Of a DNA stretch of 39,063 nucleotides, positions 5,439 to 38,069 are shown piece after piece. The stretch comes from a virus, in IMG/VR virus record IMGVR_UViG_3300030329_005444, positions 1 to 39,063 of that record; one strand, written 5' to 3'. Position 1 is the first letter of the stretch. Every line of letters begins with the position of its first letter. The translations under genes were made by a program, and so were the position numbers. A model generated the notes under the pieces. That model worked only from the letters and a program-made list of their open reading frames with translations. It searched no databases and was not told where the DNA came from.

Positions 5439-5442
5439 TCCA

Positions 5443-5655
5443 TCATCCACCAACCTTAAATAATATCTCTCTAATAACTTCTTCTATAATGATTAAGTTC
5501 TGATTAAACCCACTAATACTATCTTGATATGCAATAACTTGCGCTTTAAGTGTTGCTACTTCTTGTTGTAGATCATTAACTGTTTTAAATAACCAACCAA
5601 CTAAAGCAGCTAAACCGCCTTGTAATATTTGTCCGAGATTAACTTGAGCTTTCAT
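5443..5655 (-). CDS. Small protein, hydrophobic segment plus coiled coil
   Basis: 70 residues: a short polar start, a hydrophobic stretch around residues 8-24 (LGQILQGGLAALVGWLF), then a heptad-like helix (DLQQEVATLKAQVIAYQDSI) and an isoleucine-rich end. This architecture is compatible with a spanin-like or membrane-anchored oligomeric protein, but there is no clear family match. It is followed closely by the secreted acidic protein and preceded by another small coiled-coil/membrane protein, so the group may act together at the envelope. Confidence 0.6.
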   Translation of the reverse strand: MKAQVNLGQILQGGLAALVGWLFKTVNDLQQEVATLKAQVIAYQDSISGFNQNLIIIEEVIREILFKVGG

Positions 5656-18480: not shown

Positions 18481-20119
18481 CTCTAAACATTCCTTTCACT
18501 CGAGTTCCAAAATTACTAACTTTATCCAAAAATATATCTCCTAATCCTGCTTCAGCAGTTCCACCTAAAGCAGCAGTCTGGGCCTCTTTTTGAGTTCCAC
18601 CTACTGATGCAGATGAAGTAACCATATTACTATAACCTGTAGTTCCTTGACCAACAACACTACCCACAGCTTGAATAAATGGTGCGATGTACTGTTCTTC
18701 TGTCATACCTTGAGGTTTATTTCTATAAATCTGATTATATTTTGGCATATCTTTAATAAAAGGCATAGCAAAGTCTTCTAAAGAAACCTCTGTATTAGGG
18801 TTAACTATCCTATAATCAGTCCAAGCATTTCTAATATCATCAACTAAATGAGGATATGTATCCCATAATTTCCTTCTAACTACTTCACCAATACGTTCAT
18901 TCATTCCAGAAATCTCTTGTTCTCTAGTACCTTCATAACTAGGAACTCTAAATGTCCATTCTTTAATTTCTTTATCTTCTGCTTGATAATATTTTATGCT
19001 GCCAGCTACTTGATCTATAATGCCATTCATATCGTAACCTTGGCCTTCATATGTAGAAACTAATCCTCTCATTCTGTCTATTGCCTCAGCATTAGCTAAA
19101 TGTGATAAAGCCACCCATTGAGACATAGATGGAGAGAAACCTTGATTTTGTGCTGAACGTACATATCTTTCGAATACAGAGGCCATAACAATGTCTGCTG
19201 TAGTAGGAGGTGCAGTTAAATTACTTAAAGCAAATGGATTAGCAAAATTATCTTGCCTGGAAACTATTTCCCATTGTTGAGCAAATTGACCTCCCTGATC
19301 ATTATTTGATATTTCATAGTAATTTTCTAAAGTTGTGTTACCAGGATCCTCTACGTTCAAGAATGCACCATTACCAAAAGCTACCATATAATTACTAAAC
19401 TCTGGACTTGTCTGATAACCGTCCACCCAAGTGTCAGTTAATAAATCATACTTATCTCTACCGTAATATTTTTTTATAGCTTTCCACTGATCGTGAGGAA
19501 GTGTATCAGCTGAAGTATCCATTGCTGTATCAGCTAAATCAGGAGGAGTCTCTTCATACTGCCAAACAGAAGAATGATTATTAGCAGCTTCTAATAATAA
19601 CCTATCATCCATATTAGATACTTCAGAAGCTCTAGTAGCATTTTCTGAGAGATATATACTATAAGCTCCTGTTGTATAAGCTTTCCAATCACTAAGATCC
19701 GCTTTACCGTCAGCATTCCTATCCATCAAAAATGCAGAGTATTTAAACTGGAAATCTAAATTGGTTATTTCTTTTAAGAAATTTTCATAATCTGATTCTG
19801 ACATATCACGAGCGTGTATTCCTTTATATGGAAGAAACTGAGGAAACATTTCAAAAAGTTTTTCTTCTTCTCTATGAACATTCCAATTTATTTGAAATAA
19901 ACCATAAGAAGTTTCATATTCTTTTGCTTTAACATATTGTAAAAATTGAGATTCTTGTTGTATCACAGCGAGTAAGACAGACAAGAAATCTTTCCCACCT
20001 ACCTTTGATCCAAGTAACTTACTCATTTGAGGTGTCTTTTTGATATATCCTAAAATTGTAGATGCTGATAAAGGGGTCTGTTCCCATCCTTTAAAAGGAT
20101 CTACATTCGTATTAGCCAT
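18473..20119 (-). CDS. Virion lytic transglycosylase/ejection protein
   Basis: 548 residues. An SLT-type lysozyme domain occupies roughly residues 30-165: LLAVIQQESQF with catalytic-type Glu56, then TSYGLFQINWNVH (the GLFQIN motif, 73-78). A dockerin or EF-hand-like loop, D133-R-N-A-D-G-K-A-D-L-S-D144, follows and could bind calcium. The rest is helical. It likely cuts peptidoglycan locally during DNA entry, like T7 gp16 or other virion-associated transglycosylases. TAATG coupling joins it to the giant upstream gene, with which it probably forms the ejection channel. Confidence 0.8.
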   Translation of the reverse strand: MANTNVDPFKGWEQTPLSASTILGYIKKTPQMSKLLGSKVGGKDFLSVLLAVIQQESQFLQYVKAKEYETSYGLFQINWNVHREEEKLFEMFPQFLPYKGIHARDMSESDYENFLKEITNLDFQFKYSAFLMDRNADGKADLSDWKAYTTGAYSIYLSENATRASEVSNMDDRLLLEAANNHSSVWQYEETPPDLADTAMDTSADTLPHDQWKAIKKYYGRDKYDLLTDTWVDGYQTSPEFSNYMVAFGNGAFLNVEDPGNTTLENYYEISNNDQGGQFAQQWEIVSRQDNFANPFALSNLTAPPTTADIVMASVFERYVRSAQNQGFSPSMSQWVALSHLANAEAIDRMRGLVSTYEGQGYDMNGIIDQVAGSIKYYQAEDKEIKEWTFRVPSYEGTREQEISGMNERIGEVVRRKLWDTYPHLVDDIRNAWTDYRIVNPNTEVSLEDFAMPFIKDMPKYNQIYRNKPQGMTEEQYIAPFIQAVGSVVGQGTTGYSNMVTSSASVGGTQKEAQTAALGGTAEAGLGDIFLDKVSNFGTRVKGMFRDA

Positions 20120-23100
20120 TATTCATCTCCTATGTCTATATCCAATTTATCATAAAATCTTCTTAAATCCCACCTACTTAGATCTTCAGTTTCTATTTCT
20201 AGCTCTAATCCAGGACCTTTTCCTAAACCATAATATTGATCAGTAGGATTAAAATGTCTTTCAAAGAATACATATTCACCATAACCAGGAGCCATACTTC
20301 CATCTAATCCTTGGTCAACCCAAAGCCAGCCTAAATGTCTACCATCAAAATCTTTATGAGTAGTTCCAAATCTTCTGTCATTAACATAATAGACTCTTCC
20401 TTCATATCTTTCTAAAAATTGATTTAAAAATGCTTTTTGTCTTATAGCCATTTCAGATTCATAAGGATAAATATTTGGATCTAAATTAGTTTCATAAGCC
20501 ATAATTCCAATAACTCTTAATTCTTCACCATCTATCAACTGAACAGAGTCACCATCGATAGCTTTAGAATGTTTCACAACTCTGGAGTTTGCTGGTTTTT
20601 TAGAAGATATAGTATCAAATTCAGCTGTATAATTTCCATCTAAATCATATACTTCAAATGAAGCATCTTTCATTTCACCTTCTGATGGAAGAGGAGCCTT
20701 CCATTCTAAGTCTAGCATTTTTATTGTAGGTGAAACATAATAATCCCACCATTGTTTACCGCTAGCTACATTCTTATCTCCCTCATCATAAATACTTCCC
20801 AATAGATGATTTAAGATAATAAAAGATTGGAATAGTTCATCTCCTAAAGCATTAGCCTCATCATTATTTGCCAACTGTCCTTGGGTTTCGTCTACAGCTG
20901 TTAAGAAAGATTTGAATTTTTGTTCAAATTCAGTTAAAAATTGAATCCTATCAGGACCTTCTTCATCTGTATGTAAAACTTTAGCTTTAGCTAATTGTGT
21001 CAAAATGTTTAAACCTTCAAATATTTTTTGCTTATCTGTATCCATATTTCCACCTGAATAAAAATAAGCAGGATTAAGTTTAGCTGCTTTACTTGCTGCA
21101 TATAAATAAGGAATTATTTGGAATCCTCTATATACTCCGTTTACTGGATTCTCATATCCACTTCCTTTTAATAAATCATCCAATAAAAACACTACCTCAT
21201 CACCTAAATCTTCTACAGAAAACATATTCCATTTTAAGTTTTCAGGACTATCTTCAAGATTAGTTACATCTGTTGAAGTAAGTTTTACACCATAAAGTTC
21301 TAATAAATCTCTATTACCTTTCATTTCAGCAAAAGTAATATCTTGCAATCCAGCAGCTAACTTAGCTTGCTCTAAATTAAATTTATCAGCAATACTTCCC
21401 ATTTTTTCATAAATCACAGCTACAGAATCTATATCTAATCTAGCGTGTTCATTTATTATTTGATTATATTTTGAATCAGGAAGTCTTACTTGAATTAACC
21501 CTTCAGACATATAATCACTATAAACTGATGTGTTATCTTTTTTACCAGTACCAAAAATCTCTCCAGCTATATATGCTTTATTATTTTCTTTTTCTGGTAA
21601 TAATTGAGCGCCTAACTCAGTAACTACATAACCAGGTATAAATAAAGAAATAATTCTAGGATCTTCTTTTATTAATCTTAATCTTTTAGCTCGACCATCT
21701 ATAGTCGAACCAAGATTAAACCACCATATTTTCAAATCTTTCATTGCCTCTACTTTTAATTCTTCATTAAAAGGATGTTTCTCTATTTCTGAACGTAAAG
21801 GATTATTTTCAGTATTAGGAACAATATCTTCATAGACACCTACAGATTGTGCCCATTCAATCCAATTATCTGCTATATCTACATAATCAGCTGAAGCTCC
21901 TACTTTAACTGGATAAAGTAACCTACCACTTCCTGTTATTGCGAGGTCTCTAGCAGAATCAACCCTTGCTGCACGAGCAAATGTATTCTTATATCTATTA
22001 TAATCTGAAAGATTATCCCAGTCCTTCTCTGCTTCTAGAATCAGAGGTGTATCATCAAACGCAGCATTGTTTTCACCTCTACCAGTCTTTAAAGCAGTAG
22101 GAATATCATCTATTGTCCTAGGAGAAGCAGTCATATCAAAAGCTTCTCCGACTACACGAAGAGATTTTAATGTACTACTAACAACACCGCCGCCTAGAAG
22201 ATAGTCACGAGCAGTTTTAACCTTTTCAGCTTTCCATCGTTCTTCAGGAGGAAAGAATCCCACAGAAGGGAATACATCCTCTAAAGTTTCTTGAAGCTCA
22301 AATAATTCATCATCATCAAAAATATTTATTGCAGTTCCTATTAAAGCAATAGGAATAAATCCTCCTACAGGGTTAACAACAAACATTGCATTATCCCCAT
22401 TAGGAAGGAATGTCAAAGGAGAGAAATCTATGCTAGTTCTTTCTTCTCCTATTCCAAATACATTTAAAGGATTTCTTATACTTCCTTCTAACTGTGCATT
22501 AGCAATCCTAGACATATAAGAAAATCTTCTCATATTAGGTAAATGATTTAATCCATCAAATAATTTTCTTTTAATAAAATTACCTGCTGTTTTCTCATCA
22601 GTAAAAGCCCACCAATTTCCTCTAAATTGAGATCTTCTAGTTAAGTCTTTTAGATATCTTCCCCAGAAATCAGCCCAAGGACCACCGAAAGGAGCAAACA
22701 CTTTAAGTTCTTTTTGGAGAGGAGATGACAAATGAAACTTCAACATCATGTCATCTACTTCTTGTAAAGCGAAATCCATAGATAAAGCATTTATATAATT
22801 CTCAGTAACATATCCTTGATTAAATAACTGATCATCAAAATAAGACATACCCCACATATCAGAAGCAAACCTAGGATCTATAGCTTCTCCAACAAAACTT
22901 AAATCCTTCGTTAGATTTTCCGCTTTCTTAATAGCTTTTCCTTGAGATTCAAATAATGCAGTTAGTTGAGCTTTTCTAGTAGCAAACGCTTTGTTAGCAA
23001 TCATATTAGTCCTAGCCCAAGCAGGATCACCAAACATCTGCTCCATAACAGTACTTTCTTTTCCTGTGAATCTTCTAAAAGTTTCGTTCTTTCCTAACCA

Positions 23101-26100
23101 ACCTGCATCTCCCTTTACACCAGGTACTTTTATCTTTCCTAAATATTTAGCATCAGGCAAAGCTTTTAACATATCTTCTGAACCAGAAGCCCTTTTAGCT
23201 GCAGCATCTATAAAAGATCTCCAAATTCCAGGCTTATCTGCACCTTTAGCTCCAAGTGTGTACCAAGTTTCTAAAGATTTATAATATTTCCAAGCTTCCT
23301 CTGCATTGACTAAAGTATGGTCTATTGGAACAGCTGGCCTCTTAGACCCTGGATATAAAACAGTAGCTTGAGTTTTACCTTGCCTATAACCAAATAATTT
23401 CATTCCTTTTATATAGTTTGCATCAGGACTATCAAACCATTTAACAAAATCGTCACTCCCTTTCTCTAAAATTTCAGCAGCAGCTTTTTTAGTTAATTTT
23501 CCAGATTTCACCAATCCTTCTGTTTTATTTATAACTTGAGCGTAAACTTGAAAACCATAATCTTGTAGCAATCCTTCAATATGTTGAGTCGCCTGTTGGA
23601 AGAAACCAGAATCAGTACTACTTAACAAAGTAATAGGTTTACTACTATCAATACCCATTTGATGACGTTGAGCTAATTCCATAGGAAGTTGCTGTTGGTC
23701 TATAAAAGATTTTTCAACCCACTTATTTAACTTTTCTTGTAATTTAGGGTGGGCACTAAGATTTTCTGTACCTCCAACTTTTTCAATATTTCTAAGTAAT
23801 TTTCTAGTATCCCTATGAAACATAGAATCTTGAATAGTTCCTTTCCATCCATAAATAGATTTATAAAATAAATATTCATCTGCAGCAGCAACAAAAGCAG
23901 TAGAAGGCCTAAAGATTTTTTCATAAGCCCAAGTCCTATGAAACCAATCTGAAAATTGATACCAATTTTGAGACTGAGCATTCAGCCAAGCTTTATGAAG
24001 TTTATTGCCTCGTACGCTTCCATCAATAATCATAAACTCTAGAGGGCTAAGAGGAACCTGACCTTCTACAAGCTGATTAGTTGTTCTTTTAACATTTCTA
24101 GCAATATTAGCAAACTGTTCTACTTCTTCTACATCGCCTGTCTTCAAACCTTTTTTTAATTGATTCATAATACTGTCATCATAAGTTCTTCCAGCTATCT
24201 CAAATGAATTACCTCTTTCTGAAAGAGAAAATTTTTGACCTTTAGCTCCATATACATTTTTAATACCTATTTTTTGTCTACCTCTTAATACCGCAGAAGC
24301 AGCACCTAACTCCTCTTTAAAATCCATCATTACTCTTAAAGTTGCCCAATCAATCTCAATATTTTTTACTTTTCCAGCTTTTGTTTTTTCAATTTGAATT
24401 GGATTATCTATCCAATGAACATCAGTTCCGTGAGCATCAACAACAGCCTGCTTATCTTTCTTGAGCAGATCTCTTCCTACTATAGGACCAGCTTCTTCAA
24501 TCTTTACAGCTTGAGAATATAGAGACCCATCTTTATCTACGAGCTTAAACCAACCACCTTTAAATTTATCAAATGTATGCCATTTTGAATCGACAATAAT
24601 ACCTTTAACAACTTCCGTAAGAATTCTTTGTTTGTCTGCTCTCACAGAAGCTCCTAAAGATTTTCTATACTCTCTCATTAATTTGTCTAATTTTATTTGT
24701 AAACTTTGATGTATCTTTCTTACAACTTTATTCATATCTTCAACGGTTCCTCCTGCAGCTGGATTAACATCCAGAATTTCAGAGAATCTCTCATATATTC
24801 CATCAGCAAACTTTTTTTGTTTATCTGCCATTTCAAGAGTTTCTACAGGTGCACCTTTTCTATCTGCAAGTTTTTTAAGATCATCTATTAACTTAATCAT
24901 AAATTCTTTATTTTTAGCACTTACGAAGTCAGCCGTTCTAGCATTTACAGGAAACTCAAACATATTATAATTAGCAGCTTGACCATCTTTTCTACCAGTA
25001 ATAGGCCTAAGTTCTTTTCGCTTTGATTTTAGTGAGCGAATATACGCTTCAGTAAAAGCGATTTCTTCTGGGTCTGTTAAAGTCTTTAATCGTTTCTCAG
25101 CATTTTTTGTTACAAGATTAAGGTTTTCTTGATTTGATAATTCTGAAGATAATGAAGGACCCATTTCTGGAGCTTCATCTAAAGCTAAGTTTCTTAAAGA
25201 CTGCCCAGATTCAGTAACATCATCTCCTAAATTTCTAACAAGGTTCCTAGGTTTAAAACCTAAAATAGCTTCGAAAGTTTTTAAATTTTCAGCAGCATTC
25301 ATTACAGCTAGTCTATTAGCAGCTATAACACTCCCATTAATATCCGTTCCTTTTCCTTTAATAAGATTCCATAAATTATCTAACTCATCATCCATATAAG
25401 TTAACCATTTATTAACTCTATTTTTACCTAAATTACCTGAAGCAACTAACTGTTCTACATAATCAATCATATTTTGATTAGACCTAGGTCCAGCTAGATT
25501 TACTCTTGTTGAAGTATTTTTAGAAGTAAGCAATTTTCTAAAAGCCTTTCTATACTTTCCTGGATTCTTAGAAAATTGATTAATAATATATGAATCACTT
25601 TTAGCTTTAAAATTCATCCAAGCAGATCTATGAAAATTGTAAGGTTGATCTCCTTTTAGTAAAGCTTGTGTATAAGCTTCATAAAATGTTTCACTTGTTG
25701 CTTCATTAGCTCCTTTTAAAGCATCATCACTTACTATCTTTTTAAGAGTACGCCTATTATGATCACTGAAGCCTTTTAGTAATTGATTCTGTTTTAACTT
25801 ATCACCTGACTTGATAATTTGATATAAATCATCAGCAAAAGCTTTTCCAACTCCACTAGACATAAAACCTCTTAAATATTTTTCAGAAGCCCACATCTTT
25901 ATTGCCCCAGCTCTAACTCCTGTTTGAGGAGTTAAAAGCCATACAGTCGGATCAAAAGCAAAAGAGTTTGCAAGGTCAAACATAGAACCAGTAAATGTAC
26001 CATCTATTCCGAAAATAACTGATGGCTTATAATCAATTTCCCTTACCATATCTTGCATACCTTCAAAGTTAAATTCCACAGCCATCTTCCTGTACTCCTC

Positions 26101-27330
26101 ATCTGACAACAACCAAGCATGGCTAGCAATAGAGCCCACAAAATATTTAGAATACGCTCCTAATCCATCAACAATAATTGACCCTACAGTGTCTTCACCA
26201 GAACTTATACGTGCAATTTGTTCATCTTTCCAATTATTAATTTGTTCCGCAAATCCTGATCTAGCTTCAGCATATTCAACATTATTAGATTCAAGAATTA
26301 TTTGAAGACCTACTTTAGCCCTTTGCTCATCTCCTTGATAAAGCCTCATTAAAGTCTCATATAATTCAGGTTCCGAAGTTTGTAAATCTTCCCAACTAAT
26401 ATTCTGCAAACCAGCAAGAAATTTTCTTTCAGTACCCCATACATTTTTTTCTATTTCAATTATCTTGTCTTCTTTTAGACTTTTATTCATAGCTTCGGTA
26501 CTTAATTTACTTTCCCAAGGAGTCCCCGCAACTGTATTATTTACAGCGTCTGTCAAAACAGAACTCAAACCTTTGGCAGCCATACCTAAAAAAGTTAAAG
26601 GCCCAGATTGCCTATACATCTCTGGAGTTATTTCTACTTCTTTATCGTGAAATCTATTATCCCCTAAAGCAAGACCAAGCTTAAAACCAGTAGGAAAATC
26701 CTCAATTAGCCAATTTCTAGCCTTACCTATCATTCCTAATTTAACTTCATTAGGAAGTACCTCATGTTCTAATATTGCAGTAGAATCTGCTTCAGTCTTC
26801 CACATAGAATAAGCTTCTCCTAGTTGCTCTTGCTCTACAGCATCTTTATTCTTATTAAACTCTTTATCAAAATCTATACCTTTCCAAAATTTTTCCTCTT
26901 TACCATCACGATAGATAACATTACCGCCAGCACCTACACCTAAGAAATTTGCAGCAAAATTATAAAATTTAGTTTTCCATTTTGTTCTATTTTTAGCAAG
27001 CATTTCTATTTCTTGATCAGTAGTTTGTCTTGCCTCCCAATGACTATTAGCAGTATTCTGAACTACTTCACTTGAAAGATCAACACCCATAGAGCTGTAA
27101 AAATCTAAAGTTTCATCATCTGCATCAAAAAATACTGAAGTAGGCATTTCGCCTTGATTATTAACTACAGCTTTTTCTATCTTATTAACTGAAGGAGACG
27201 CTGAAGGGGGATAGTAATTAGTTAAATCTTTTGGATCAGGTAAATTATATTGTAAAACGCCATCAAAATTCTGGGCTTTCTCATCATACTTTACCTCATC
27301 TAACCTATCTTCTAAAGGCTTATCACTCAT
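20119..27330 (-). CDS. Giant internal virion protein with SNase-like C-terminus
   Basis: 2403 residues from ATG 27330, which has AGGGAG six bases upstream (an ATG at 27336 is too close to that site). Most of the chain is helical and charged with no family I can name. A hydrophobic segment (FVVNPVGGFIPIALIGTAI) lies near residue 1655. The last 155 residues look like a staphylococcal nuclease-type domain: AIDGDSVQLIDG (Asp2259, Asp2261), EELRVIGIMAYET (Arg2272, Glu2280) and DGRHLGWLWVD (Arg2331). These match SNase Asp19, Asp21, Arg35, Glu43 and Arg87, but the position of calcium ligand Asp40 is Met2277. By size and place after the portal it should be an ejected protein that forms a DNA channel. 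The nuclease-like tail could act on host nucleic acid or only bind DNA. No T7- or N4-type RNA polymerase motifs were found. Confidence 0.75.
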   Translation of the reverse strand: MSDKPLEDRLDEVKYDEKAQNFDGVLQYNLPDPKDLTNYYPPSASPSVNKIEKAVVNNQGEMPTSVFFDADDETLDFYSSMGVDLSSEVVQNTANSHWEARQTTDQEIEMLAKNRTKWKTKFYNFAANFLGVGAGGNVIYRDGKEEKFWKGIDFDKEFNKNKDAVEQEQLGEAYSMWKTEADSTAILEHEVLPNEVKLGMIGKARNWLIEDFPTGFKLGLALGDNRFHDKEVEITPEMYRQSGPLTFLGMAAKGLSSVLTDAVNNTVAGTPWESKLSTEAMNKSLKEDKIIEIEKNVWGTERKFLAGLQNISWEDLQTSEPELYETLMRLYQGDEQRAKVGLQIILESNNVEYAEARSGFAEQINNWKDEQIARISSGEDTVGSIIVDGLGAYSKYFVGSIASHAWLLSDEEYRKMAVEFNFEGMQDMVREIDYKPSVIFGIDGTFTGSMFDLANSFAFDPTVWLLTPQTGVRAGAIKMWASEKYLRGFMSSGVGKAFADDLYQIIKSGDKLKQNQLLKGFSDHNRRTLKKIVSDDALKGANEATSETFYEAYTQALLKGDQPYNFHRSAWMNFKAKSDSYIINQFSKNPGKYRKAFRKLLTSKNTSTRVNLAGPRSNQNMIDYVEQLVASGNLGKNRVNKWLTYMDDELDNLWNLIKGKGTDINGSVIAANRLAVMNAAENLKTFEAILGFKPRNLVRNLGDDVTESGQSLRNLALDEAPEMGPSLSSELSNQENLNLVTKNAEKRLKTLTDPEEIAFTEAYIRSLKSKRKELRPITGRKDGQAANYNMFEFPVNARTADFVSAKNKEFMIKLIDDLKKLADRKGAPVETLEMADKQKKFADGIYERFSEILDVNPAAGGTVEDMNKVVRKIHQSLQIKLDKLMREYRKSLGASVRADKQRILTEVVKGIIVDSKWHTFDKFKGGWFKLVDKDGSLYSQAVKIEEAGPIVGRDLLKKDKQAVVDAHGTDVHWIDNPIQIEKTKAGKVKNIEIDWATLRVMMDFKEELGAASAVLRGRQKIGIKNVYGAKGQKFSLSERGNSFEIAGRTYDDSIMNQLKKGLKTGDVEEVEQFANIARNVKRTTNQLVEGQVPLSPLEFMIIDGSVRGNKLHKAWLNAQSQNWYQFSDWFHRTWAYEKIFRPSTAFVAAADEYLFYKSIYGWKGTIQDSMFHRDTRKLLRNIEKVGGTENLSAHPKLQEKLNKWVEKSFIDQQQLPMELAQRHQMGIDSSKPITLLSSTDSGFFQQATQHIEGLLQDYGFQVYAQVINKTEGLVKSGKLTKKAAAEILEKGSDDFVKWFDSPDANYIKGMKLFGYRQGKTQATVLYPGSKRPAVPIDHTLVNAEEAWKYYKSLETWYTLGAKGADKPGIWRSFIDAAAKRASGSEDMLKALPDAKYLGKIKVPGVKGDAGWLGKNETFRRFTGKESTVMEQMFGDPAWARTNMIANKAFATRKAQLTALFESQGKAIKKAENLTKDLSFVGEAIDPRFASDMWGMSYFDDQLFNQGYVTENYINALSMDFALQEVDDMMLKFHLSSPLQKELKVFAPFGGPWADFWGRYLKDLTRRSQFRGNWWAFTDEKTAGNFIKRKLFDGLNHLPNMRRFSYMSRIANAQLEGSIRNPLNVFGIGEERTSIDFSPLTFLPNGDNAMFVVNPVGGFIPIALIGTAINIFDDDELFELQETLEDVFPSVGFFPPEERWKAEKVKTARDYLLGGGVVSSTLKSLRVVGEAFDMTASPRTIDDIPTALKTGRGENNAAFDDTPLILEAEKDWDNLSDYNRYKNTFARAARVDSARDLAITGSGRLLYPVKVGASADYVDIADNWIEWAQSVGVYEDIVPNTENNPLRSEIEKHPFNEELKVEAMKDLKIWWFNLGSTIDGRAKRLRLIKEDPRIISLFIPGYVVTELGAQLLPEKENNKAYIAGEIFGTGKKDNTSVYSDYMSEGLIQVRLPDSKYNQIINEHARLDIDSVAVIYEKMGSIADKFNLEQAKLAAGLQDITFAEMKGNRDLLELYGVKLTSTDVTNLEDSPENLKWNMFSVEDLGDEVVFLLDDLLKGSGYENPVNGVYRGFQIIPYLYAASKAAKLNPAYFYSGGNMDTDKQKIFEGLNILTQLAKAKVLHTDEEGPDRIQFLTEFEQKFKSFLTAVDETQGQLANNDEANALGDELFQSFIILNHLLGSIYDEGDKNVASGKQWWDYYVSPTIKMLDLEWKAPLPSEGEMKDASFEVYDLDGNYTAEFDTISSKKPANSRVVKHSKAIDGDSVQLIDGEELRVIGIMAYETNLDPNIYPYESEMAIRQKAFLNQFLERYEGRVYYVNDRRFGTTHKDFDGRHLGWLWVDQGLDGSMAPGYGEYVFFERHFNPTDQYYGLGKGPGLELEIETEDLSRWDLRRFYDKLDIDIGDE

Positions 27331-27751
27331 CGTCATCTCCCTGCATATCAGAAAGAACAGCTCCCTTTAATATCTCAGCTGCTGCTTTTCTAACTGCAGG
27401 AATACTAGTCTCTTCAAAGACTTCCATAGCTCTTTGAACAGCTGAAGCTCTTTGTTGTTGTTGCTCAGTTAGAACCATTGGTGAAGGTCCAGCACCAAGA
27501 CCAAATTTTAATTTATCAGAAGCTATATTTCCAGGCCCTTGTGCATTTTGTATAAATTCAGATACACCACCACCTAAATTTAAACTCTCATTAGCAGGTG
27601 CTATTCTTGCAGGACCAGGAGACACAGGTGGTTCAGTGCCCCCTGTTCCTAGACTTACACCTCCTGCTGCTGCTAAATCTTCTACACCTTGTTTATCTGG
27701 TAATCCACCTAAATCGGTAATTTGTGATGGGCCGTCATATCCATTTGCCAT
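27323..27751 (-). CDS. Hypothetical Gly/Pro-rich protein next to portal
   Basis: 142 residues. The first 90 are low-complexity, rich in Gly, Pro and Ala (for example LGTGGTEPPVSPGPARIAPA). The C-terminal 50 residues form a likely helix (EQQQQRASAVQRAMEVFEET) ending in an acidic QGDDDE. It has a strong AGGAGG site. It may be a small head or scaffold accessory. The same Gly/Pro-rich style appears at the C-terminus of the portal. Confidence 0.55.
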   Translation of the reverse strand: MANGYDGPSQITDLGGLPDKQGVEDLAAAGGVSLGTGGTEPPVSPGPARIAPANESLNLGGGVSEFIQNAQGPGNIASDKLKFGLGAGPSPMVLTEQQQQRASAVQRAMEVFEETSIPAVRKAAAEILKGAVLSDMQGDDDE

Positions 27752-32496: not shown

Positions 32497-32519
32497 TTTA
32501 TTCCTCCATTATTTCTGTA

Positions 32520-32547
32520 ATACTAGTAATAGAAAATAATTATGCAA
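32520..32547 (-). promoter_or_regulatory. Candidate sigma-70 promoter of the long - strand unit
   Basis: On the - strand, TTGCAT (32542-32547) and TAGTAT (32520-32525) are separated by 16 bases. The ATG of the helicase gene is 24 bases beyond the -10, with GGAGG in between. It is the only promoter-like pair seen before the helicase gene and could start the whole late transcript. Confidence 0.42.
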
Positions 32548-32557
32548 CCAAAAGAAA

Positions 32558-32584
32558 AAAGAGTTGGGGGCTGTCCAACTCTTT
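32558..32584. terminator. 10-bp hairpin, probable bidirectional terminator
   Basis: AAAGAGTTGG (32558-32567) pairs perfectly with CCAACTCTTT (32575-32584) around a 7-base loop. The + strand continues with ATTTCTTT, the - strand with TTTTTTCTTTT. It insulates the helicase promoter from the origin region. The U-tract is better on the - strand. Confidence 0.65.
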
Positions 32585-32618
32585 ATTTCTTTATGCTGCT
32601 TTAAAGGAGAAAAATTAT

Positions 32619-32651
32619 ATGAATGAACATAGAATTTTTCTAATTCAATAA
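32619..32651 (+). CDS. Possible 10-residue leader peptide
   Basis: ATG at 32619 follows AAAGGAGAAAAATTAT and encodes MNEHRIFLIQ before a stop. Only the good ribosome site supports it. It lies directly upstream of the iteron block on the + strand. It could be chance, a leader peptide, or the relic of a longer gene. Confidence 0.2.
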   Translation: MNEHRIFLIQ

Positions 32652-32682
32652 TAGACTTCCTACGTTTTTAGTACAACTTTTT

Positions 32683-32840
32683 TTGGACTAATTGGACTAA
32701 AAAGTTAGTCCAGTTTTTTCTGGACTAACTTTCACAATTAGGCATTGGGTATATCCAATAAAGCCTATGATTAGTACGGTTTTTCGAATGCCAGAGTTAG
32801 TCCACTTATGTCCACCCTTTAGGGTGGACTAAGGGACTAA
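32683..32840. other. Iteron-like repeat block, candidate replication origin
   Basis: GGACTAA occurs in direct orientation at 32685, 32694, 32722, 32826 and 32834, and as TTAGTCC at 32705 and 32797: seven copies in 156 bases. The first two sit in tandem 9-mers TTGGACTAA. Two perfect dyads are built from the unit: 32701-32713 with 32720-32732 (13 bp, T6 loop) and GTCCACCCT-TT-AGGGTGGAC at 32809-32828. The AT-rich tract follows at once. Helicase, primase and SSB genes flank the region. Iterons plus an AT-rich element is the normal design of plasmid-type origins; this use is inferred. Confidence 0.65.
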
Positions 32841-32863
32841 AGGGATAGGTTAATTTAAGGGGG

Positions 32864-32930
32864 TATTAATTAAATAAGTCAATATATAGCTATATATAAG
32901 CATTTATATAGGGTTTTTATCTAAATATAA
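32864..32930. other. AT-rich tract, possible unwinding element
   Basis: An almost pure A/T stretch containing TATTAATTAAATAA, CAATATATAGCTATATATAAG and TTATATAGGG. It directly follows the iterons. No frame is open across it. It suits a DNA unwinding element. Confidence 0.5.
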
Positions 32931-33036
32931 GGGTTTTCGCAAAATTAATGTGGGGACTTTCTCTAAGGTTGGGAATGGGATTTTATGTTTGTCGTTTGGC
33001 TTTAATTCTCTCTGAGTGTCCAAATCCCCTTCCCTT

Positions 33037-33185
33037 GAGATAAATCTATTCACTCGCTACGCTCGCTGCTTCGTTTATCTCGGAGGCTAAAAAAAACAAC
33101 TATATATATTCACATTCGTATAAGCTTTTTGAAAGATCAAAAACCTTGACCAAAAAATCTCTCAAATTGAGGTAGACTCAATTTG
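33037..33185. repeat. Two hairpins in the control region
   Basis: GAGATAAA (33037-33044) pairs with TTTATCTC (33074-33081) around a 29-base, GC-rich loop containing CACTCGCTACGCTCGCTG. Further on, CAAATTGAG (33163-33171) pairs with CTCAATTTG (33177-33185) around 5 bases, and a third related word CTCAATTTTG follows at 33194. Neither has a terminator T-run. There is no gene here; the GC-rich loop stands out from the AT-rich background. Confidence 0.45.
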
Positions 33186-33229
33186 GTTTAGTGCTCAATT
33201 TTGACGTAACTGTGGCTACTCTCTCTCTC

Positions 33230-33445
33230 GGTTAACACCACCTTAGCGAACAAGACGACCAAGCATAAGTAAAATCGATAGGTAACAATTTCTACTCTTT
33301 TGTGGCCTGCAATCTTTTACTTTTCCGCTACCTACCCCATTCCTCATTGGTTACAGGCCAGTCAGAGCAGAAATTCTAACTTCCCTCGTTCCTCGGCTAT
33401 CGATTTGACTTCTTCCTTGATCGGTTCGCTTGAGGCGTGTTATCC
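33230..33445 (+). ncRNA. 216-nt nested stem structure upstream of the SSB-like gene
   Basis: Segments pair in strictly nested order: 33230-33238 with 33437-33445 (8 of 9), 33241-33243 with 33433-33435, 33245-33251 with 33424-33430 (7 bp), 33260-33263 with 33416-33419, 33267-33281 with 33397-33411 (14 of 15, AAATCGATAG core), 33287-33293 with 33369-33375 (7 bp), 33303-33309 with 33354-33360 (7 bp, TGGCCTG). About 49 pairs form one long interrupted rod with a 44-nt tip. No reading frame fills the region and its GC content is above the neighbourhood. It could be a non-coding RNA, a leader of the SSB gene, or a DNA cruciform at the origin. It matches no RNA family I recognise. Confidence 0.6.
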
Positions 33446-33480
33446 AAGAGAAACTTGGTGTTGATTAAAAGGAGTTCAAA

Positions 33481-33810
33481 ATGAACGAAATTAAGTTAGT
33501 TGGTAGTCTACAAACTGCTGACATTGAAAAATGCAAAGTAAATTCTGGTTATCTAAATAGAGTTTTATTTAAACCAGACTACGATGGCAAAGGATTTGTC
33601 AATTCATTTGGAGTAGAAATACATACAGATAATGCTGATGTTAATGACATTTTAGATAAATTGACTAAATCACAAGAAAATGTCGACAATTGGTATGACG
33701 CTAATTTAAAAGTTGAATTAACTGGTAGGTTAAGAGCAAATAACTACAAATCAGGTGGTTCAACTGTTTATCAAAACATTATTGAAGTTAAAGCTGTAGA
33801 CTTTCAATAA
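33481..33810 (+). CDS. SSB-like single-stranded DNA binding protein
   Basis: 109 residues with an OB-fold pattern: EIKLVGSLQTADIEKCKVNS, NRVLFKPDYDGKGFVNSFGVEIH, a helix NDILDKLTKSQENV, and strands LKVELTGRLRANNYKSGGST and YQNIIEVKAVDF. The GRLRANNY...YQNIIEVKAV end is SSB-like. There is no acidic C-terminal tail like that of bacterial SSB, so it may not recruit host partners. AAAGGAGTTC gives a good ribosome site. It is a single-gene unit between the structured element and a strong terminator, close to the putative origin. Confidence 0.6.
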   Translation: MNEIKLVGSLQTADIEKCKVNSGYLNRVLFKPDYDGKGFVNSFGVEIHTDNADVNDILDKLTKSQENVDNWYDANLKVELTGRLRANNYKSGGSTVYQNIIEVKAVDFQ

Positions 33811-33816
33811 TTCCCC

Positions 33817-33866
33817 TAAGTGTGTAGGCATCTGTTTAGGTGTCTACACACTTAAAAATTTTTTTT
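33817..33866 (+). terminator. Rho-independent terminator after SSB-like gene
   Basis: TAAGTGTGTAG (33817-33827) pairs with CTACACACTTA (33844-33854), extended inside by five more pairs (two of them G-U) to a 6-base loop. AAAA and a run of eight T follow. It separates the SSB gene from the operon at 34082. Confidence 0.88.
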
Positions 33867-33902
33867 AAATGAGAATCTATATAGTTATTTTTTTTAGCCC
33901 AA

Positions 33903-33908
33903 TATAAT
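33903..33908 (+). promoter_or_regulatory. Consensus -10 box of the amidoligase operon
   Basis: A perfect TATAAT lies between the terminator and the hairpin array. A start near 33915 would give a leader of about 165 nt holding all three inverted repeats. The -35 region (TATAGTTATTT) is weak. Confidence 0.4.
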
Positions 33909-33936
33909 TATTGTTGAGTATGGGAATGGCACATAG

Positions 33937-34060
33937 CAGTGAATACATAACAAAGTAATAGATAACCAGAATATCCACACAACGTTATGTATTCACTGGT
34001 ATGGGATAGACCTATACCTTTCTACACTGTTACTAGGTGTTAGAAATAATACCTAGTAAC
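33937..34060 (+). promoter_or_regulatory. Array of three hairpins in the operon leader
   Basis: First, CAGTGAATACATAAC (33937-33951) pairs perfectly with 33984-33998 (15 bp, 32-base loop). Second, 33998-34005 pairs with 34011-34018 (8 bp with one G-U). Third, GTTACTAGGT (34029-34038) pairs with ACCTAGTAAC (34051-34060). None is followed by a T-run. The last ends 7 bases before GGAGG. Operator, riboregulator or RNA-stability roles are all possible. The GTTATGTA core is shared with sites at 782, 828 and 2271-2293. Confidence 0.5.
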
Positions 34061-34081
34061 TAAAAATGGAGGAAAAAATAT

Positions 34082-34261
34082 ATGGAATATACATATTGGT
34101 ATTGGTATCTTGATGAAGTTAATAATCTCATCAAGTTACAATATACAAACACTCACGATGATACGTTAAATCCTGACACGAGTGAAAATACTAAATACTA
34201 CACATCATTAGCAGACGCAATGCATAATGCACCTAAGTTTGCTGAGATAGTAAATGTTTAG
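34082..34261 (+). CDS. 59-residue aromatic-rich small protein
   Basis: It begins MEYTYWYWYLDEVNNLIKLQ and ends NAPKFAEIVNV. The seven residues after the second codon include four aromatics in a row (YWYWY). GGAGG stands 9 bases before the ATG within the repeated AATGGAGGA context. It is the first gene of the amidoligase operon and overlaps the next gene by 8 bases. I do not recognise a family. It could be a regulator, or a peptide substrate of the operon's ligase, which is speculation. Confidence 0.65.
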   Translation: MEYTYWYWYLDEVNNLIKLQYTNTHDDTLNPDTSENTKYYTSLADAMHNAPKFAEIVNV

Positions 34262-34361
34262 TGTTCAAGGATTAATAATTACTTTTATGTTCGGATATAT
34301 GATGGCAATCATAGTTGAAGGCATAAAAGATATTATTAAAGAAACCAAAATAAATAAATGA
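34254..34361 (+). CDS. 35-residue membrane peptide
   Basis: The frame reads MFSVQGLIITFMFGYMMAII then VEGIKDIIKETKINK: one membrane helix and a charged amphipathic tail. Its ATG overlaps the previous stop and its TGA overlaps an ATG at 34358 (ATGA). This suggests coupled translation and a membrane-linked function for the operon. Confidence 0.5.
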   Translation: MFSVQGLIITFMFGYMMAIIVEGIKDIIKETKINK

Positions 34362-34405
34362 GTTTCTCAAAAAGAGCATTTGAGAAATCAGAAATGGAGG
34401 AAAAT

Positions 34406-34651
34406 ATGCCGAATACATTCCAAGTTAAAATTACTGAAAATGTATTAGGTATCTATGGCACATATCTAGGAGGCAAGATAAGAAATAATAAACTTGTTTT
34501 GCAAGTTAGAAATGTGCAAGATACTGAATGGGGAGATAGTGAAACTGTAAAACAATATGAACTATCTAGTGATACTGTAGATGAACTAATCAATGCATTA
34601 GTTGATATACATATAAAAATGGAGGATAAAAATGGCCAAGAAAGTGAGTAA
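34406..34651 (+). CDS. Hypothetical small protein of the amidoligase operon
   Basis: 81 residues (MPNTFQVKITENVLGIYGTY...) from the ATG at 34406, preceded by AATGGAGGAAAAT. An in-frame ATG at 34358 would add 16 residues and overlaps the upstream stop (ATGA), so both starts could be used. The sequence alternates beta strands (NKLVLQVRNVQD, KQYELSSDTV) with a C-terminal helix (DELINALVDIHIKM). No known family. Confidence 0.65.
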   Translation: MPNTFQVKITENVLGIYGTYLGGKIRNNKLVLQVRNVQDTEWGDSETVKQYELSSDTVDELINALVDIHIKMEDKNGQESE

Positions 34652-34862
34652 ATTAGTAGCTAAAGGATTAGCTGTTAAAATGGTAGATAATACTGAGAAT
34701 CCTGCACAACTTAGGGATTTAGCAGTTAACTCATTAACTGAACTATATCTATCTGATGATAGATTCTTTAGAATGGATAAAGATATTATTGAAGGACAAG
34801 AAAAGTTATCTGAAATAATATCTGAAGTATCACGAATCGAGGCACAAAATGCCACGAATTAA
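34632..34862 (+). CDS. Hypothetical helical protein of the amidoligase operon
   Basis: 76 residues, helical and charged: a basic start (MAKKVSKLVAKGLAVKMVDN), then LRDLAVNSLTELYLSDDRFF and an acidic end (EKLSEIISEVSRIEAQNATN). It has AATGGAGGATAAA upstream and overlaps both neighbours. It may be an adaptor or regulator. No family is recognised. Confidence 0.65.
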   Translation: MAKKVSKLVAKGLAVKMVDNTENPAQLRDLAVNSLTELYLSDDRFFRMDKDIIEGQEKLSEIISEVSRIEAQNATN

Positions 34863-36213
34863 AGATAACCATCAAGCAACTCAATTCGAGGAAGTAATTC
34901 CTAGAGAATTTAGAAGGCTAGTTAGTGAAAATAGATTAGCTGAATCTAAATTTAATGAGTTGCTTGAAGGAATTAAATATGCATACGATGAAAATAGTAT
35001 TCCTAAAAATATATGTAATACTAATAATATACCCATAGACAGTTATAGGCAACACCATCCTTTAGCTGTTAAAAAAGGACAATATTGTCAAATTGGAGTG
35101 CAGAGATGTATTCCAATGAGTTATGGACATAAACCATTTGGTAATGATGTCCTAGATTTTGACCCTGATATAGGTGAATTTATTTGGTATAACATATATG
35201 AATGGAAATCTAGAAATTATATTAACAATATAAATTCATCACCTTATAGCCATTTACAACATATCAAAGGTAACACTATGCCATCATTATTGCAATATAT
35301 TCCAATGGGAATTGAATTGGAATATATTTCTAGACTATCTCAACAAGACCAAACTGGTTGGCAATGTGATGGTTGTGCAGAATATGATTATGATAATGGT
35401 TATAATCGTGAAACATTTTGTTATGAGGACACAACTTGCGATGAGGAAGCAAATGCATTCTCAGGAATTTACGATTGTGGTAATAATAATGAAATTAGAA
35501 AATGGGAGGAAAATTCTTTTAGATTTCTTGCTGAACTTAATTTATCATTTGGTGCAGTTGGAACACAAGGTAAAAGAGTATGGATAGCAAAAGCTGATTC
35601 ATCAGTTGATATTGAATTTGTTAGTGCACCTATGACTCTTAGAGCATATAAAATGGGATTTGCTATAGCTGAATATTTATTCAATAGTTTTGATGTATAT
35701 TCAGAACACGCAAAAGGATTTTATGGCCCTTGTGGAGCACATATTCATATAGATAAACAAACTATTGATAATCCATATCAATATTATGCATTTTTATCTA
35801 TGCATTATGAAAATCCTGAATTAATAGCAACTATTGCACAACGTTCAATTGGTTCTGATAGTGAATGGTGTTATCTACAGAAACCAGATGAAGTAGCTAG
35901 ATTTGCTTATTACAAAAGTAATAGCGGAACTAGAGGAGCTGTGCACGTTGGAAGTGATACAGTAGAGCTTAGATATTTTAGGTCTAATTTAAAAGTTGAA
36001 AGACTTTTAAAGAATCTAGAATTTACACAAGCTTTATATCATTTTGTAACACAATTAAGTTATCAAGATATGTCTAGAGATAATGGACATAAAGCTAAAT
36101 ATTTTTTGTTATGGATACGAGCTTATCGTAATACATACAAAAATTTATTTAATTTCTTGACATCAAGAGGTTGGTTAGGAAATGATGAATACACAGAAAT
36201 GGAGGAAAGATAA
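34849..36213 (+). CDS. Putative amidoligase (COOH-NH2 ligase, GCS-like fold)
   Basis: 454 residues. From residue 150 on, the motifs of the Amidoligase_2 family appear in order: GIELEY (154-159), ADSSVDIEFVSAPM (249-262), GAHIHID (296-302), an Arg at 333, and VELRYFRSN (372-380). These acidic, His and Arg residues form the ATP/metal site of glutamine synthetase/gamma-glutamyl-cysteine synthetase-type ligases, which join a carboxyl to an amine through an acyl phosphate. An insert at 172-210 carries Cys173, Cys176, Cys191, Cys197 and Cys210 and may bind zinc. The first 150 residues are a separate, unrecognised domain. The stop overlaps the start of a class II glutamine amidotransferase (TAATG), so the two probably act as a pair with glutamine as the nitrogen source. 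The substrate is unknown. Confidence 0.72.
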   Translation: MPRIKDNHQATQFEEVIPREFRRLVSENRLAESKFNELLEGIKYAYDENSIPKNICNTNNIPIDSYRQHHPLAVKKGQYCQIGVQRCIPMSYGHKPFGNDVLDFDPDIGEFIWYNIYEWKSRNYINNINSSPYSHLQHIKGNTMPSLLQYIPMGIELEYISRLSQQDQTGWQCDGCAEYDYDNGYNRETFCYEDTTCDEEANAFSGIYDCGNNNEIRKWEENSFRFLAELNLSFGAVGTQGKRVWIAKADSSVDIEFVSAPMTLRAYKMGFAIAEYLFNSFDVYSEHAKGFYGPCGAHIHIDKQTIDNPYQYYAFLSMHYENPELIATIAQRSIGSDSEWCYLQKPDEVARFAYYKSNSGTRGAVHVGSDTVELRYFRSNLKVERLLKNLEFTQALYHFVTQLSYQDMSRDNGHKAKYFLLWIRAYRNTYKNLFNFLTSRGWLGNDEYTEMEER

Positions 36214-37103
36214 TGTGTATTATTGCAATGATACCAGCAGGTAAGCAAATTAATAAAAATACTCTTGAAAATATGACTAATAACAATCCAGATGGAAGTG
36301 GAATAGCGTGGATTCAAGATAATAAAATTAAAACATATAAAACTATGGATAATGAAAAATTTATTAATAAAGCGTTAGAAGTACAAAGTAAATTTTGTAA
36401 AGATAGCGATATATTAATTCATTGTAGAATTGCTACATCAGGTAAAACTGATTTAGATAATTGTCATCCATTCAAAATAAGTAATGATACTGTTTTTGCA
36501 CATAATGGAATATTAAATTGTGTTGAAGCTACAAATAAAGTTAGTGATACAAGAATATTTAATAAAGCATTATTAAAACAGTTAAAACCAGAATTTCTAG
36601 ATAATGTAACTACTAGGAAATTAATTGGAGAAATAATTAAGAGTGATAAATTAGCATTCTTAACAGTTAATCCTAAATTAAAAAGAAATAGTTATATTAT
36701 TAATAGAGATTTAGGTGAAAAAGAAAATCGTGTATGGTTTTCTAATGATTCATATAAGGAAAAAACTTATGTTACTGATGTTTGTTATAATTGGAACTTA
36801 AGACCTGATTATGATTCTATTGAGGAAACACCACACGATGATGAAACATTACCTGCTAATGTTTTTCAACCATTTGACCAAAATTTAGAAGTTTGGTTAA
36901 GAGGAAATGATTATGAGGATATAATTATAAGTCCTTATAGAACAGATAAAGTTGATAACAAGTTAGCTAGTAAAAATAAAATCAAATTAAATAAAGTACA
37001 AAATTTAGATGAGGCAGAGTACGCTGATTTATATTTTGATACATTTGGAATTGAATGTCCAGTAATTGTTGAGGATACAATGCATGAAAGTTGGATATTC
37101 TAA
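36213..37103 (+). CDS. Class II glutamine amidotransferase-like protein
   Basis: 296 residues. The N-terminus M-C2-I-I gives the Ntn-type nucleophilic Cys after Met removal. Further family marks are NPDGSG (25-30), H70-C-R-I-A-T-S-G77, N83-C-H-P-F and FAHNGI (95-100), with the Arg, Asn and Gly residues used to hold glutamine. It should release ammonia from glutamine. No synthase domain is fused; the C-terminal 120 residues are unrecognised and acidic. The start overlaps the amidoligase stop and has AATGGAGGA upstream. The natural acceptor partner is the amidoligase. The codon choice is strikingly AT-rich, as in the amidoligase. Confidence 0.8.
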   Translation: MCIIAMIPAGKQINKNTLENMTNNNPDGSGIAWIQDNKIKTYKTMDNEKFINKALEVQSKFCKDSDILIHCRIATSGKTDLDNCHPFKISNDTVFAHNGILNCVEATNKVSDTRIFNKALLKQLKPEFLDNVTTRKLIGEIIKSDKLAFLTVNPKLKRNSYIINRDLGEKENRVWFSNDSYKEKTYVTDVCYNWNLRPDYDSIEETPHDDETLPANVFQPFDQNLEVWLRGNDYEDIIISPYRTDKVDNKLASKNKIKLNKVQNLDEAEYADLYFDTFGIECPVIVEDTMHESWIF

Positions 37104-37112
37104 ATAAATAAT

Positions 37113-37159
37113 GTTATACACCTAGATATATTTCTAGGTGTATAACTTAAAAAAATTTT
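37113..37159. terminator. 13-bp hairpin terminator between convergent genes
   Basis: GTTATACACCTAG (37113-37125) pairs perfectly with CTAGGTGTATAAC (37134-37146) around an 8-base loop, then TTAAAAAAATTTTT. It separates the + strand amidotransferase from the - strand primase and should work in both directions. Confidence 0.85.
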
Positions 37160-37193
37160 TGATCGTTTATAAATGTCTAGTAGGGAATAGTGA

Positions 37194-38069
37194 CTAGTAA
37201 GGATAACCAGTGCTAGCCTTCTGTATTTGTTGCATTAATGTTTCAGGCCTATTCTTAAATTTATTAAAAGGTGTAGGATTGAGTATTGCAAAAGTCTCTT
37301 CGATAGAATATTTATTTTTAATTAATTTTAAAGCTAGAGAAAATATTAAACGAGAACGGTCTACATCTGTATGCTTAGCATATTCTTTTGATGTCATAGT
37401 AACCCAATACTGAACTTCTAAAGGTAGCTCGTCAATTTTAATTTCATACTCGCCATTAGGTATAGTTCTTGGAGCTTCAACTTCTGTAGTTTTTAAATTA
37501 GGAATTGCATCAAAATCATCTATGGTGTATGTGCATTCTGAATCATATTTTTCTATAGTTCCTTTTTCTCCGCCTCTTTTTGCATTAACAGATAAGGGCA
37601 CTCGCAATACTCTTGCGCTGTCCCAAGCACCCTTATCCGCATTTAAGTGGTAAACCAACCTTCTGTTTAGATCTTGTTGAATTTCTAGAGACACCAAAGA
37701 ATCTAACAGCCATATCCCTTGCCACCTAGATTTACTGGTAGTCCATACAATAGATGGTTCAGGCGCTAGTTTTATTCCACCACTCCATTTGACATCAAGC
37801 TCATCCATATCTACAAATAAACAACCTTGCTTGTCTTTAACATTTATTGATTTTCTTGAGTCAGCATCATTAAAACATAAAGGAGTCCAATATATATCTT
37901 CTTCCTCATTTTGATTTTCAAGATGTTCTTTTATAGCTGCGTAATCATCCCAAGAAATTTTTTTATCGTTCCATTTTTTTCCTTTAGTAGATATAAAGGC
38001 AAATCCTCCACCGTTATTGGCCCATACTGTGCTCATTAAATAAAGTGAATCTTTAGAATTATTAAACAT
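37194..38069 (-). CDS. RepB-like primase (archaeo-eukaryotic primase type)
   Basis: 291 residues. Motif I is LFVDMDE (Asp87, Asp89). A motif II-like segment, TTSKSRWQGIWLL (110-122), takes the place of the S-x-H strand, as in RepB-type primases with SPGxxQ. Motif III is GAWDSARVLRVPLSVNAK (147-164, Asp150), typical of primases that end in R-x-P-x-x-x-N-x-K. The last 100 residues form a helical primase C-terminal-like domain (PLEVQYWVT to MQQIQKA). It has GGAGA before its ATG. It likely makes primers for replication together with the RepA-like helicase at 31414-32496. Polymerase activity is possible for this superfamily but not shown. Confidence 0.7.
   Translation of the reverse strand: MFNNSKDSLYLMSTVWANNGGGFAFISTKGKKWNDKKISWDDYAAIKEHLENQNEEEDIYWTPLCFNDADSRKSINVKDKQGCLFVDMDELDVKWSGGIKLAPEPSIVWTTSKSRWQGIWLLDSLVSLEIQQDLNRRLVYHLNADKGAWDSARVLRVPLSVNAKRGGEKGTIEKYDSECTYTIDDFDAIPNLKTTEVEAPRTIPNGEYEIKIDELPLEVQYWVTMTSKEYAKHTDVDRSRLIFSLALKLIKNKYSIEETFAILNPTPFNKFKNRPETLMQQIQKASTGYPY

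What the first reader, a model, noticed from the sequence alone, without database searches (positions are those of the whole stretch)
34065..37159. Amidoligase and class II glutamine amidotransferase operon with four small proteins, in a phage
Two enzymes with complete motif sets overlap by one base. The ligase shows GIELEY, DSSVDIEFVS, GAHIHID and ELRYFRS; the amidotransferase shows Cys2, NPDGSG, HCRIATSG and HNG. They follow four small genes of 59, 35, 81 and 76 residues, all inside one hairpin-bounded transcription unit. Known knowledge: GCS-like amidoligases and class II amidotransferases are predicted partners for novel peptide or wall modification. Inference: the phage makes amide bonds on a host wall peptide, a host protein, or one of its own small proteins. 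The full six-gene arrangement may be undescribed.
Basis: partly seen in the sequence, partly recalled or inferred. Interest (0 to 1): 0.85.

Follow-up and report, generated by a model that had tools for sequence, protein, structure and literature searches.

The report
Phage amidoligase–glutaminase gene pair
A marine phage carries two overlapping genes for a glutamine-fed amide-bond-forming enzyme pair; the pair is real and recurs as a nearly inseparable unit in many phages, mostly ones that appear to infect Actinobacteria, but it was already described and its target is still unknown.

Summary
Window 34849-36213 encodes a divergent GCS-like (PF12224-type) amidoligase. Window 36213-37103 encodes a class II glutamine amidotransferase (GAT) with every catalytic residue. 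They overlap by one base and follow four small genes, with a strong hairpin behind them. The pair is not new: Mycobacterium phage Marvin gp105-106, the OM43 phages MEP401/402 and the larger phiEco32/LUZ24-type 'peptidoglycan modification' cassettes carry it.

(1) The pairing is close to obligatory: 86 of 89 GAT-selected loci have the ligase directly upstream, and 74 of 74 testable ligase-selected loci have the GAT directly downstream. (2) Most relatives lie in WhiB-encoding phages, with whiB 0.2-1.1 kb downstream, so the two-gene form is mainly an actinophage feature. (3) Of the four small genes, only the 76-residue one stays with the pair beyond the nearest relative, so the six-gene arrangement is lineage-specific. 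(4) 18 of 20 records searched lack the cassette's gamma-glutamyl cyclotransferase, which favours GAT-derived ammonia amidating a carboxylate over a make-and-remove gamma-glutamyl route.

The substrate is untested; an envelope peptide of an actinobacterial host is my best guess. This is a new member of a known kind.

The parts
34082..34261 (+). small ORF, 59 aa, tyrosine/tryptophan-rich start; homologue (57%) in the nearest relative only
   Evidence: ATGGAGGA ribosome-binding motif
34254..34361 (+). small ORF, 35 aa, one hydrophobic helix (read by eye); homologue in the nearest relative is longer (76 aa)
34406..34651 (+). small ORF, 81 aa (97 aa from the in-frame ATG at 34358); 89% identical in the nearest relative, no other homologue found
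34632..34862 (+). small ORF, 76 aa; the only small gene kept directly 5' of the ligase across the window's wider lineage (about 35-46% in L015-L018, L198, L200)
34849..36213 (+). GCS-like amidoligase (PF12224-type), 454 aa, with a CxxC-x14-C-x5-C insert (173-197) between the GIELE and DSS motifs
36213..37103 (+). class II glutamine amidotransferase (Ntn-type glutaminase), 296 aa; catalytic domain residues 1-185
37113..37146 (.). 14-bp hairpin between the convergent GAT and primase-like genes, probably a terminator
   Evidence: conserved in L009
33817..33854 (+). 17-bp hairpin plus T-run, terminator of the preceding gene (33481-33810)
34029..34060 (+). 14-bp hairpin without T-run just upstream of the first small gene (5' leader)
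   Evidence: conserved in L009 with pairing kept

Best explanation
The two enzymes form a two-component, glutamine-dependent amidoligase. The GAT hydrolyses glutamine with its N-terminal cysteine. The GCS-like ligase activates a carboxylate with ATP as an acyl phosphate and joins ammonia, or possibly another amine, to it to make an amide. The genes lie in the replication-gene side of the genome, so expression in the early or middle, host-takeover phase is likely. Shown here: both folds and active sites, tight pairing in both directions, co-divergence, and actinophage context of most relatives. Inferred: ammonia transfer between the two proteins, and the target. The target is most likely a carboxylate of the host envelope (for example D-Glu or diaminopimelate of a peptidoglycan precursor) in an actinobacterial host, changed so as to affect superinfection or lysis.
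For: The ligase matches GCS/GS-superfamily enzymes by fold: YbdK-family 1tt4 E=1.3e-4 and 1r8g 7.6e-4, with PafA, Dop, glutamine synthetase and plant GCL below them. It also matches by sequence. K248, D250, E256, G296, H298, H300, N322, R332, E373 and R375 are invariant in 41 relatives. The GAT matches the GlmS glutaminase domain best, and C2, R72, T75, H85, N98, G99 and D112 are invariant in 38 relatives. Ligase directly 5' of GAT in 86 of 89 GAT-selected loci with upstream sequence; GAT directly 3' of the ligase in 74 of 74 testable ligase-selected loci. Mantel r = 0.96 between the ligase and GAT distance matrices over 84 loci, 0 of 999 permutations as high. 18 of 20 records searched have no gamma-glutamyl cyclotransferase, so a two-enzyme make-and-break gamma-glutamyl cycle would be futile in them. 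Host side: WhiB in 13 of 20 whole records and a WhiB-type ORF 228-1125 bp downstream of the GAT in 63 of 91 loci; Mycobacterium and Bifidobacterium phages carry the pair; the window's terminase and portal are nearest to actinophages.
Against: No enzymatic data. The ligase model is poor in its N-terminal half (mean pLDDT 52), and Pfam support for the window protein is below the curated cut-off (13.6 of 22 bits). OM43 phages (betaproteobacterial hosts) and a C. difficile phage also have the ligase, so an actinobacterial target is not universal and the C. difficile case lacks a nearby GAT. The window itself has no WhiB, and its host assignment rests on 26-30% identities. Nothing ties the target to the wall. 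The two selection sets share contigs and near-identical phages. Mantel correlation shows co-inheritance, not physical contact.
Confidence: 0.62

Rival explanations
1. Gamma-glutamyl protection route, as in ergothioneine synthesis (EgtA ligase plus EgtC hydrolase): the ligase attaches gamma-glutamate to an amine, and the GAT-like protein is a gamma-glutamyl hydrolase that removes it later.
For: EgtC is among the best fold matches of the GAT and a weak NCBIfam hit for relatives. In ctfjg026 the GAT is fused to a gamma-glutamyl cyclotransferase, and L011 combines ligase, GAT, ATP-grasp and cyclotransferase.
Against: In most records searched no cyclotransferase or close ATP-grasp homologue was found, so with only these two enzymes making and removing the same bond would be futile. 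GlmS is a slightly better match than EgtC by fold and better by sequence.
Confidence: 0.13
2. The pair amidates a protein: a host protein, a phage protein, or the adjacent small protein, rather than a wall precursor.
For: The s76 homologues found by scan lie directly 5' of the ligase. A different two-helix small ORF occupies that place in 44 of 80 loci and nowhere else in those loci. Zinc-binding regions in ligases and cysteine pairs in GATs of relatives could bind a macromolecule.
Against: The small proteins are not detectably homologous between lineages and share no conserved acidic C-terminus. Several branches, including Marvin and OM43, have other ORFs there.
Confidence: 0.2
3. Auxiliary nitrogen or amino-acid metabolism: the pair mobilises glutamine nitrogen for the infected cell.
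For: Proposed for a planctomycete phage with similar genes (PMC10945688).
Against: A free glutaminase would not need a dedicated ligase, yet the two are nearly inseparable. No other metabolic genes were recognised among the window genes examined.
Confidence: 0.05

Closest known systems
Mycobacterium phage Marvin (cluster S) gp105-gp106
   Same: Same two enzymes, adjacent and in the same order, near one genome end; in 19 records of this phage group
   Different: Ligase about 29% identical over the core only; cysteine-rich region N-terminal instead of an internal Cys4 insert; other small neighbours
OM43 phages MEP401/MEP402 amidoligase plus GATase
   Same: Same order, 10-bp overlap; described as PF12224 plus PF13522 in PMC10580990, which cites Iyer et al. 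2009 and the Marvin paper
   Different: Betaproteobacterial host; longer ligase (about 548 aa); neighbouring small genes unrelated
phiEco32 / LUZ24 / RIO-1 / PSA-HP1 'peptidoglycan modification' cassette
   Same: GCS-like amidoligase and class II GAT in the early region; proposed to change the wall against superinfection (PMC5498523, PMC3890496, PMC11945000)
   Different: The cassette also has a COOH-NH2 ligase, ATP-grasp enzyme and gamma-glutamyl cyclotransferase; the cyclotransferase (PF06094) was not found in the window. Absence of PF14395 was not interpretable
MurT-GatD and AsnB/LtsA wall amidation (Actinobacteria, staphylococci; general knowledge, MurT-GatD also in the abstract of PMC3267633)
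   Same: Glutamine-fed amidation of peptidoglycan-precursor carboxylates by a ligase plus glutaminase
   Different: Different ligase folds (Mur ligase, asparagine-synthetase type); GatD is a class I-type glutaminase; resemblance of reaction only

Membership tests
PF12224 Amidoligase_2 / GCS-like amidoligase | Sequence match to the family profile | tested here: inconclusive
   Window protein 13.6 bits, below the 22-bit cut-off; close relative L015 18.6 bits; L014 34.1 bits over the cut-off; the window is linked to that group by hhalign probability 98 and HMM E=5.9e-9
PF12224 Amidoligase_2 / GCS-like amidoligase | Active-site signature GxExE ... D[GS]S ... GxHxH ... R ... ExR | tested here: met
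   GxExE followed by the D[GSAT][ST] motif in 41 of 41; D250, E256, H298, H300, R332, E373 and R375 invariant; GxExE to D[GS]S spacing about 97 instead of about 31-42 because of a Cys4 insert
PF12224 Amidoligase_2 / GCS-like amidoligase | GCS/glutamine-synthetase fold | tested here: met
   Foldseek YbdK-family 1tt4 E=1.3e-4 and 1r8g 7.6e-4, prob 1.00, although the model has mean pLDDT 52
Class II glutamine amidotransferase | N-terminal catalytic Cys, Gln-binding Arg/Thr/Asp, oxyanion Asn-Gly, Ntn fold | tested here: met
   PF13230 37.4 bits over the cut-off; catalytic columns invariant in 38 of 38; GlmS glutaminase 5e-6
phiEco32-type peptidoglycan modification cassette | Gamma-glutamyl cyclotransferase (PF06094) beside ligase and GAT | tested here: not met
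   No PF06094 in the window; the control search rang in 9 known genomes
phiEco32-type peptidoglycan modification cassette | Second ligase of PF14395 type | tested here: inconclusive
   None found, but the search rang nowhere, controls included
phiEco32-type peptidoglycan modification cassette | ATP-grasp enzyme | tested here: inconclusive
   Only a close homologue of the L011 ATP-grasp was sought; none in the window
phiEco32-type peptidoglycan modification cassette | Modified host wall | not testable with these tools
   Needs infected-cell chemistry
Known anti-phage defence system | PADLOC family match | tested here: not met
   No PADLOC hit for ligase, GAT or the four small proteins

The most novel reading that the evidence does not exclude
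Amidoligase and GAT are the core of an actinophage-wide host-takeover module, usually flanked by a lineage-specific small helical protein and WhiB, that amidates one specific actinobacterial target, with the adjacent small protein serving as adaptor or substrate. Candidate targets would be lipid II carboxylates or, more speculatively, the C-terminal glutamate of Pup, whose ligase and deamidase share the superfamily fold.
Probability: 0.12. Interest if true: 0.7.

Novelty: new member of a known kind. Interest (0 to 1): 0.38.

Why it matters
The reaction catalysed by phage amidoligase-GAT pairs has been predicted since 2009 but, as far as the papers read here show, never demonstrated. The two-gene form is the simplest version. 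It occurs in genetically tractable mycobacteriophages (Marvin group) and appears to be common in uncultured aquatic actinophages. A knockout and mass-spectrometry experiment in M. smegmatis could therefore settle what these enzymes modify.

Tried and rejected
Alignment of all named-phage and IMG/VR ligases (A1): MAFFT misplaces the window's GIELE motif because of the Cys4 insert, so conclusions on that motif use motif order instead. The A2 alignment was too diverse to scan with. The genome-contig scan with the GAT found one weak archaeal-MAG hit without a ligase, so bacterial prophage copies are rare or missed by the two short patterns. Homology of s76 to the two-helix ORF of other lineages was tested and not supported (hhalign probability 0.2). 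The PF14395 search was uninformative. No Rfam family and no tRNA in the window. No PADLOC match. Iyer 2009 and the Marvin paper are not held in the library; their content is cited only through PMC10580990 and the other papers read. An anti-Pup function was considered but has only fold-superfamily support, and OM43 hosts, to my knowledge, lack Pup.

Full report
What is there. The window is a virus record of 39,063 bases at 35% G+C, with its last 98 bases repeated at the start, so it is probably a complete, circularly read phage genome. Window 34082-37103 holds six plus-strand ORFs of 59, 35, 81 (or 97), 76, 454 and 296 residues. Four of the starts carry an ATGGAGGA ribosome-binding motif. The ligase stop and the GAT start overlap by one base. 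A 14-bp hairpin lies behind the last gene, and a 17-bp hairpin with a T-run closes the preceding gene.

Ligase. Pfam gives only 13.6 bits to Amidoligase_2 for the window protein. A PHROG family scores 1.5e-6. A profile made only from other phage lineages picks this single ORF out of the window at 5.9e-9, and profile-profile comparison gives probability 98. Some of those other lineages pass Pfam's PF12224 cut-off. The predicted structure is weak (mean pLDDT 52), but its best solved-structure matches are the YbdK carboxylate-amine ligases, then PafA, glutamine synthetase and Dop. The expected active-site positions downstream of the first motif are invariant over 41 relatives, and the first motif is present in all 41 in the right order. 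One architectural difference is real: in the window's lineage a Cys4 (zinc-type) element sits between the GIELE and DSS motifs, about 97 residues apart. Most relatives have a gap of about 31-42 residues there and carry their cysteines N-terminally; that N-terminal region weakly resembles LIM-type zinc domains.

Glutamine amidotransferase. PF13230 is over the cut-off. The catalytic domain model is confident (about pLDDT 93 over residues 1-180) and matches the GlmS glutaminase domain first, EgtC second. Cys2, Arg72, Thr75, His85, Asn98, Gly99 and Asp112 are invariant in 38 relatives.

Pairing. I scanned viral contigs with the GAT and examined neighbourhoods, named phages included. The ligase is directly upstream in 86 of 91 loci. 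Two of the other five have too little upstream sequence. One, a Bifidobacterium phage, has its ligase split across two reading frames. One, ctfjg026, has a divergent ligase-like protein that only the alignment shows. One, in an archaeal MAG, has none. The reverse selection, by ligase, gave a GAT directly downstream in 74 of 74 loci with enough sequence. These sets share contigs and near-identical phages. A C. difficile phage with the ligase but no GAT within 4 kb is a clear exception. Ligase and GAT distances correlate at r = 0.96 over 84 loci. The two proteins are therefore co-inherited and very likely act together.

Small genes. The 59-, 35- and 81/97-residue genes have clear homologues only in contig 3300020472_003568, whose ligase is 91% identical. 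The 76-residue gene is also present directly 5' of the ligase in six more loci of the same lineage, and the scan found it nowhere else. In another large branch an unrelated two-helix ORF takes the same position in 44 of 80 loci. The six-gene set is therefore a local arrangement. The pair, perhaps with one small helical partner, is the stable part.

Hosts. WhiB, which the literature treats as restricted to Actinobacteria and as an indicator of actinophages (PMC10202952, PMC6802176), was found by Pfam HMM in 13 of 20 whole records that bear the pair. A WhiB-type ORF was found by motif 228-1125 bp downstream of the GAT in 63 of 91 loci. Mycobacterium and Bifidobacterium phages carry the pair. The window lacks WhiB, but its terminase and portal are nearest to Streptomyces, Mycobacterium and Gordonia phages at about 26-30% identity. 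An actinobacterial host is a reasonable inference for the window, not a demonstration. OM43 phages show that the pair is not confined to actinophages.

Mechanism. A free-standing glutaminase tied to a single ligase is the pattern of glutamine-dependent amidation: glutamine to ammonia, carboxylate plus ATP to acyl phosphate, then amide. The main rival is an EgtA/EgtC-like gamma-glutamyl route. It is less likely because 18 of 20 records searched have no cyclotransferase and none but L011 has a close homologue of its ATP-grasp enzyme, so making and cutting the same bond would achieve nothing. The target cannot be told from sequence. Envelope peptides are the published guess for the larger cassettes (PMC5498523, PMC11945000) and remain my first choice at low confidence. 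A protein target is next.

Known or new. Phage amidoligase plus GATase is described in Pseudomonas, OM43 and Pseudoalteromonas phage papers; the OM43 paper credits Iyer et al. 2009 and the Marvin paper. The window is a divergent new member of that kind. In the papers read here I did not find the near-obligatory two-gene form with its WhiB neighbourhood described. I count this as a useful extension, not a new system.

Noticed in passing
L014, L028, L044, L049, L062, L063, L068, L076, L083, L090, L025, L040, L077 and others: whiB lies 0.2-1.1 kb downstream of the ligase-GAT pair in most IMG/VR relatives, marking them as probable actinophages.
   Followed up: yes
window 33918-34017 and 33542-33555: A long inverted repeat between the SSB-like gene and the small genes has a loop (33959-33972) that is a 14-nt perfect reverse complement of the start region of the gene at 33481-33810; kept in L009, not seen in L017/L018. 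Mononucleotide shuffles reach 14 or more in 7 of 2000. Possible antisense control.
   Followed up: partly
window 32500-33480 and 33810-34080: Repeat-rich non-coding stretches. The 270-base leader 33810-34080 is nearly identical in L009, with paired changes in its hairpins, while the first small genes diverge; no Rfam family matches.
   Followed up: partly
L003 1850-3521 (Bifidobacterium phage BP677P1): The ligase is split over two reading frames directly before the GAT-like gene: a sequencing error, a broken gene or a programmed frameshift.
   Followed up: no
L011 905-3508 and G012 36613-37839: A phage with RimK-like ATP-grasp, amidoligase, GAT and gamma-glutamyl cyclotransferase together, a bridge between the two-gene form and the phiEco32-type cassette.
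   Followed up: partly
L004 4923-6140 (Caudoviricetes ctfjg026): Class II amidotransferase fused to a gamma-glutamyl cyclotransferase (PF06094) in one protein.
   Followed up: partly
44 of 80 loci, directly 5' of the ligase (e.g. L083 4517-4699, L014 1591-1809): A 55-80 residue, probably two-helix protein family without clear PHROG match, found only next to the ligase in the loci held.
   Followed up: partly
window 3435-5453: 672-residue protein with a Thr run and very long acidic (Glu-rich) repeats, with hydrophobic ends; no PHROG match; possibly a surface or fibre protein.
   Followed up: no
window 20119-27336: 2405-residue ORF in the virion gene cluster, not examined; a large internal virion protein is suspected.
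   Followed up: no
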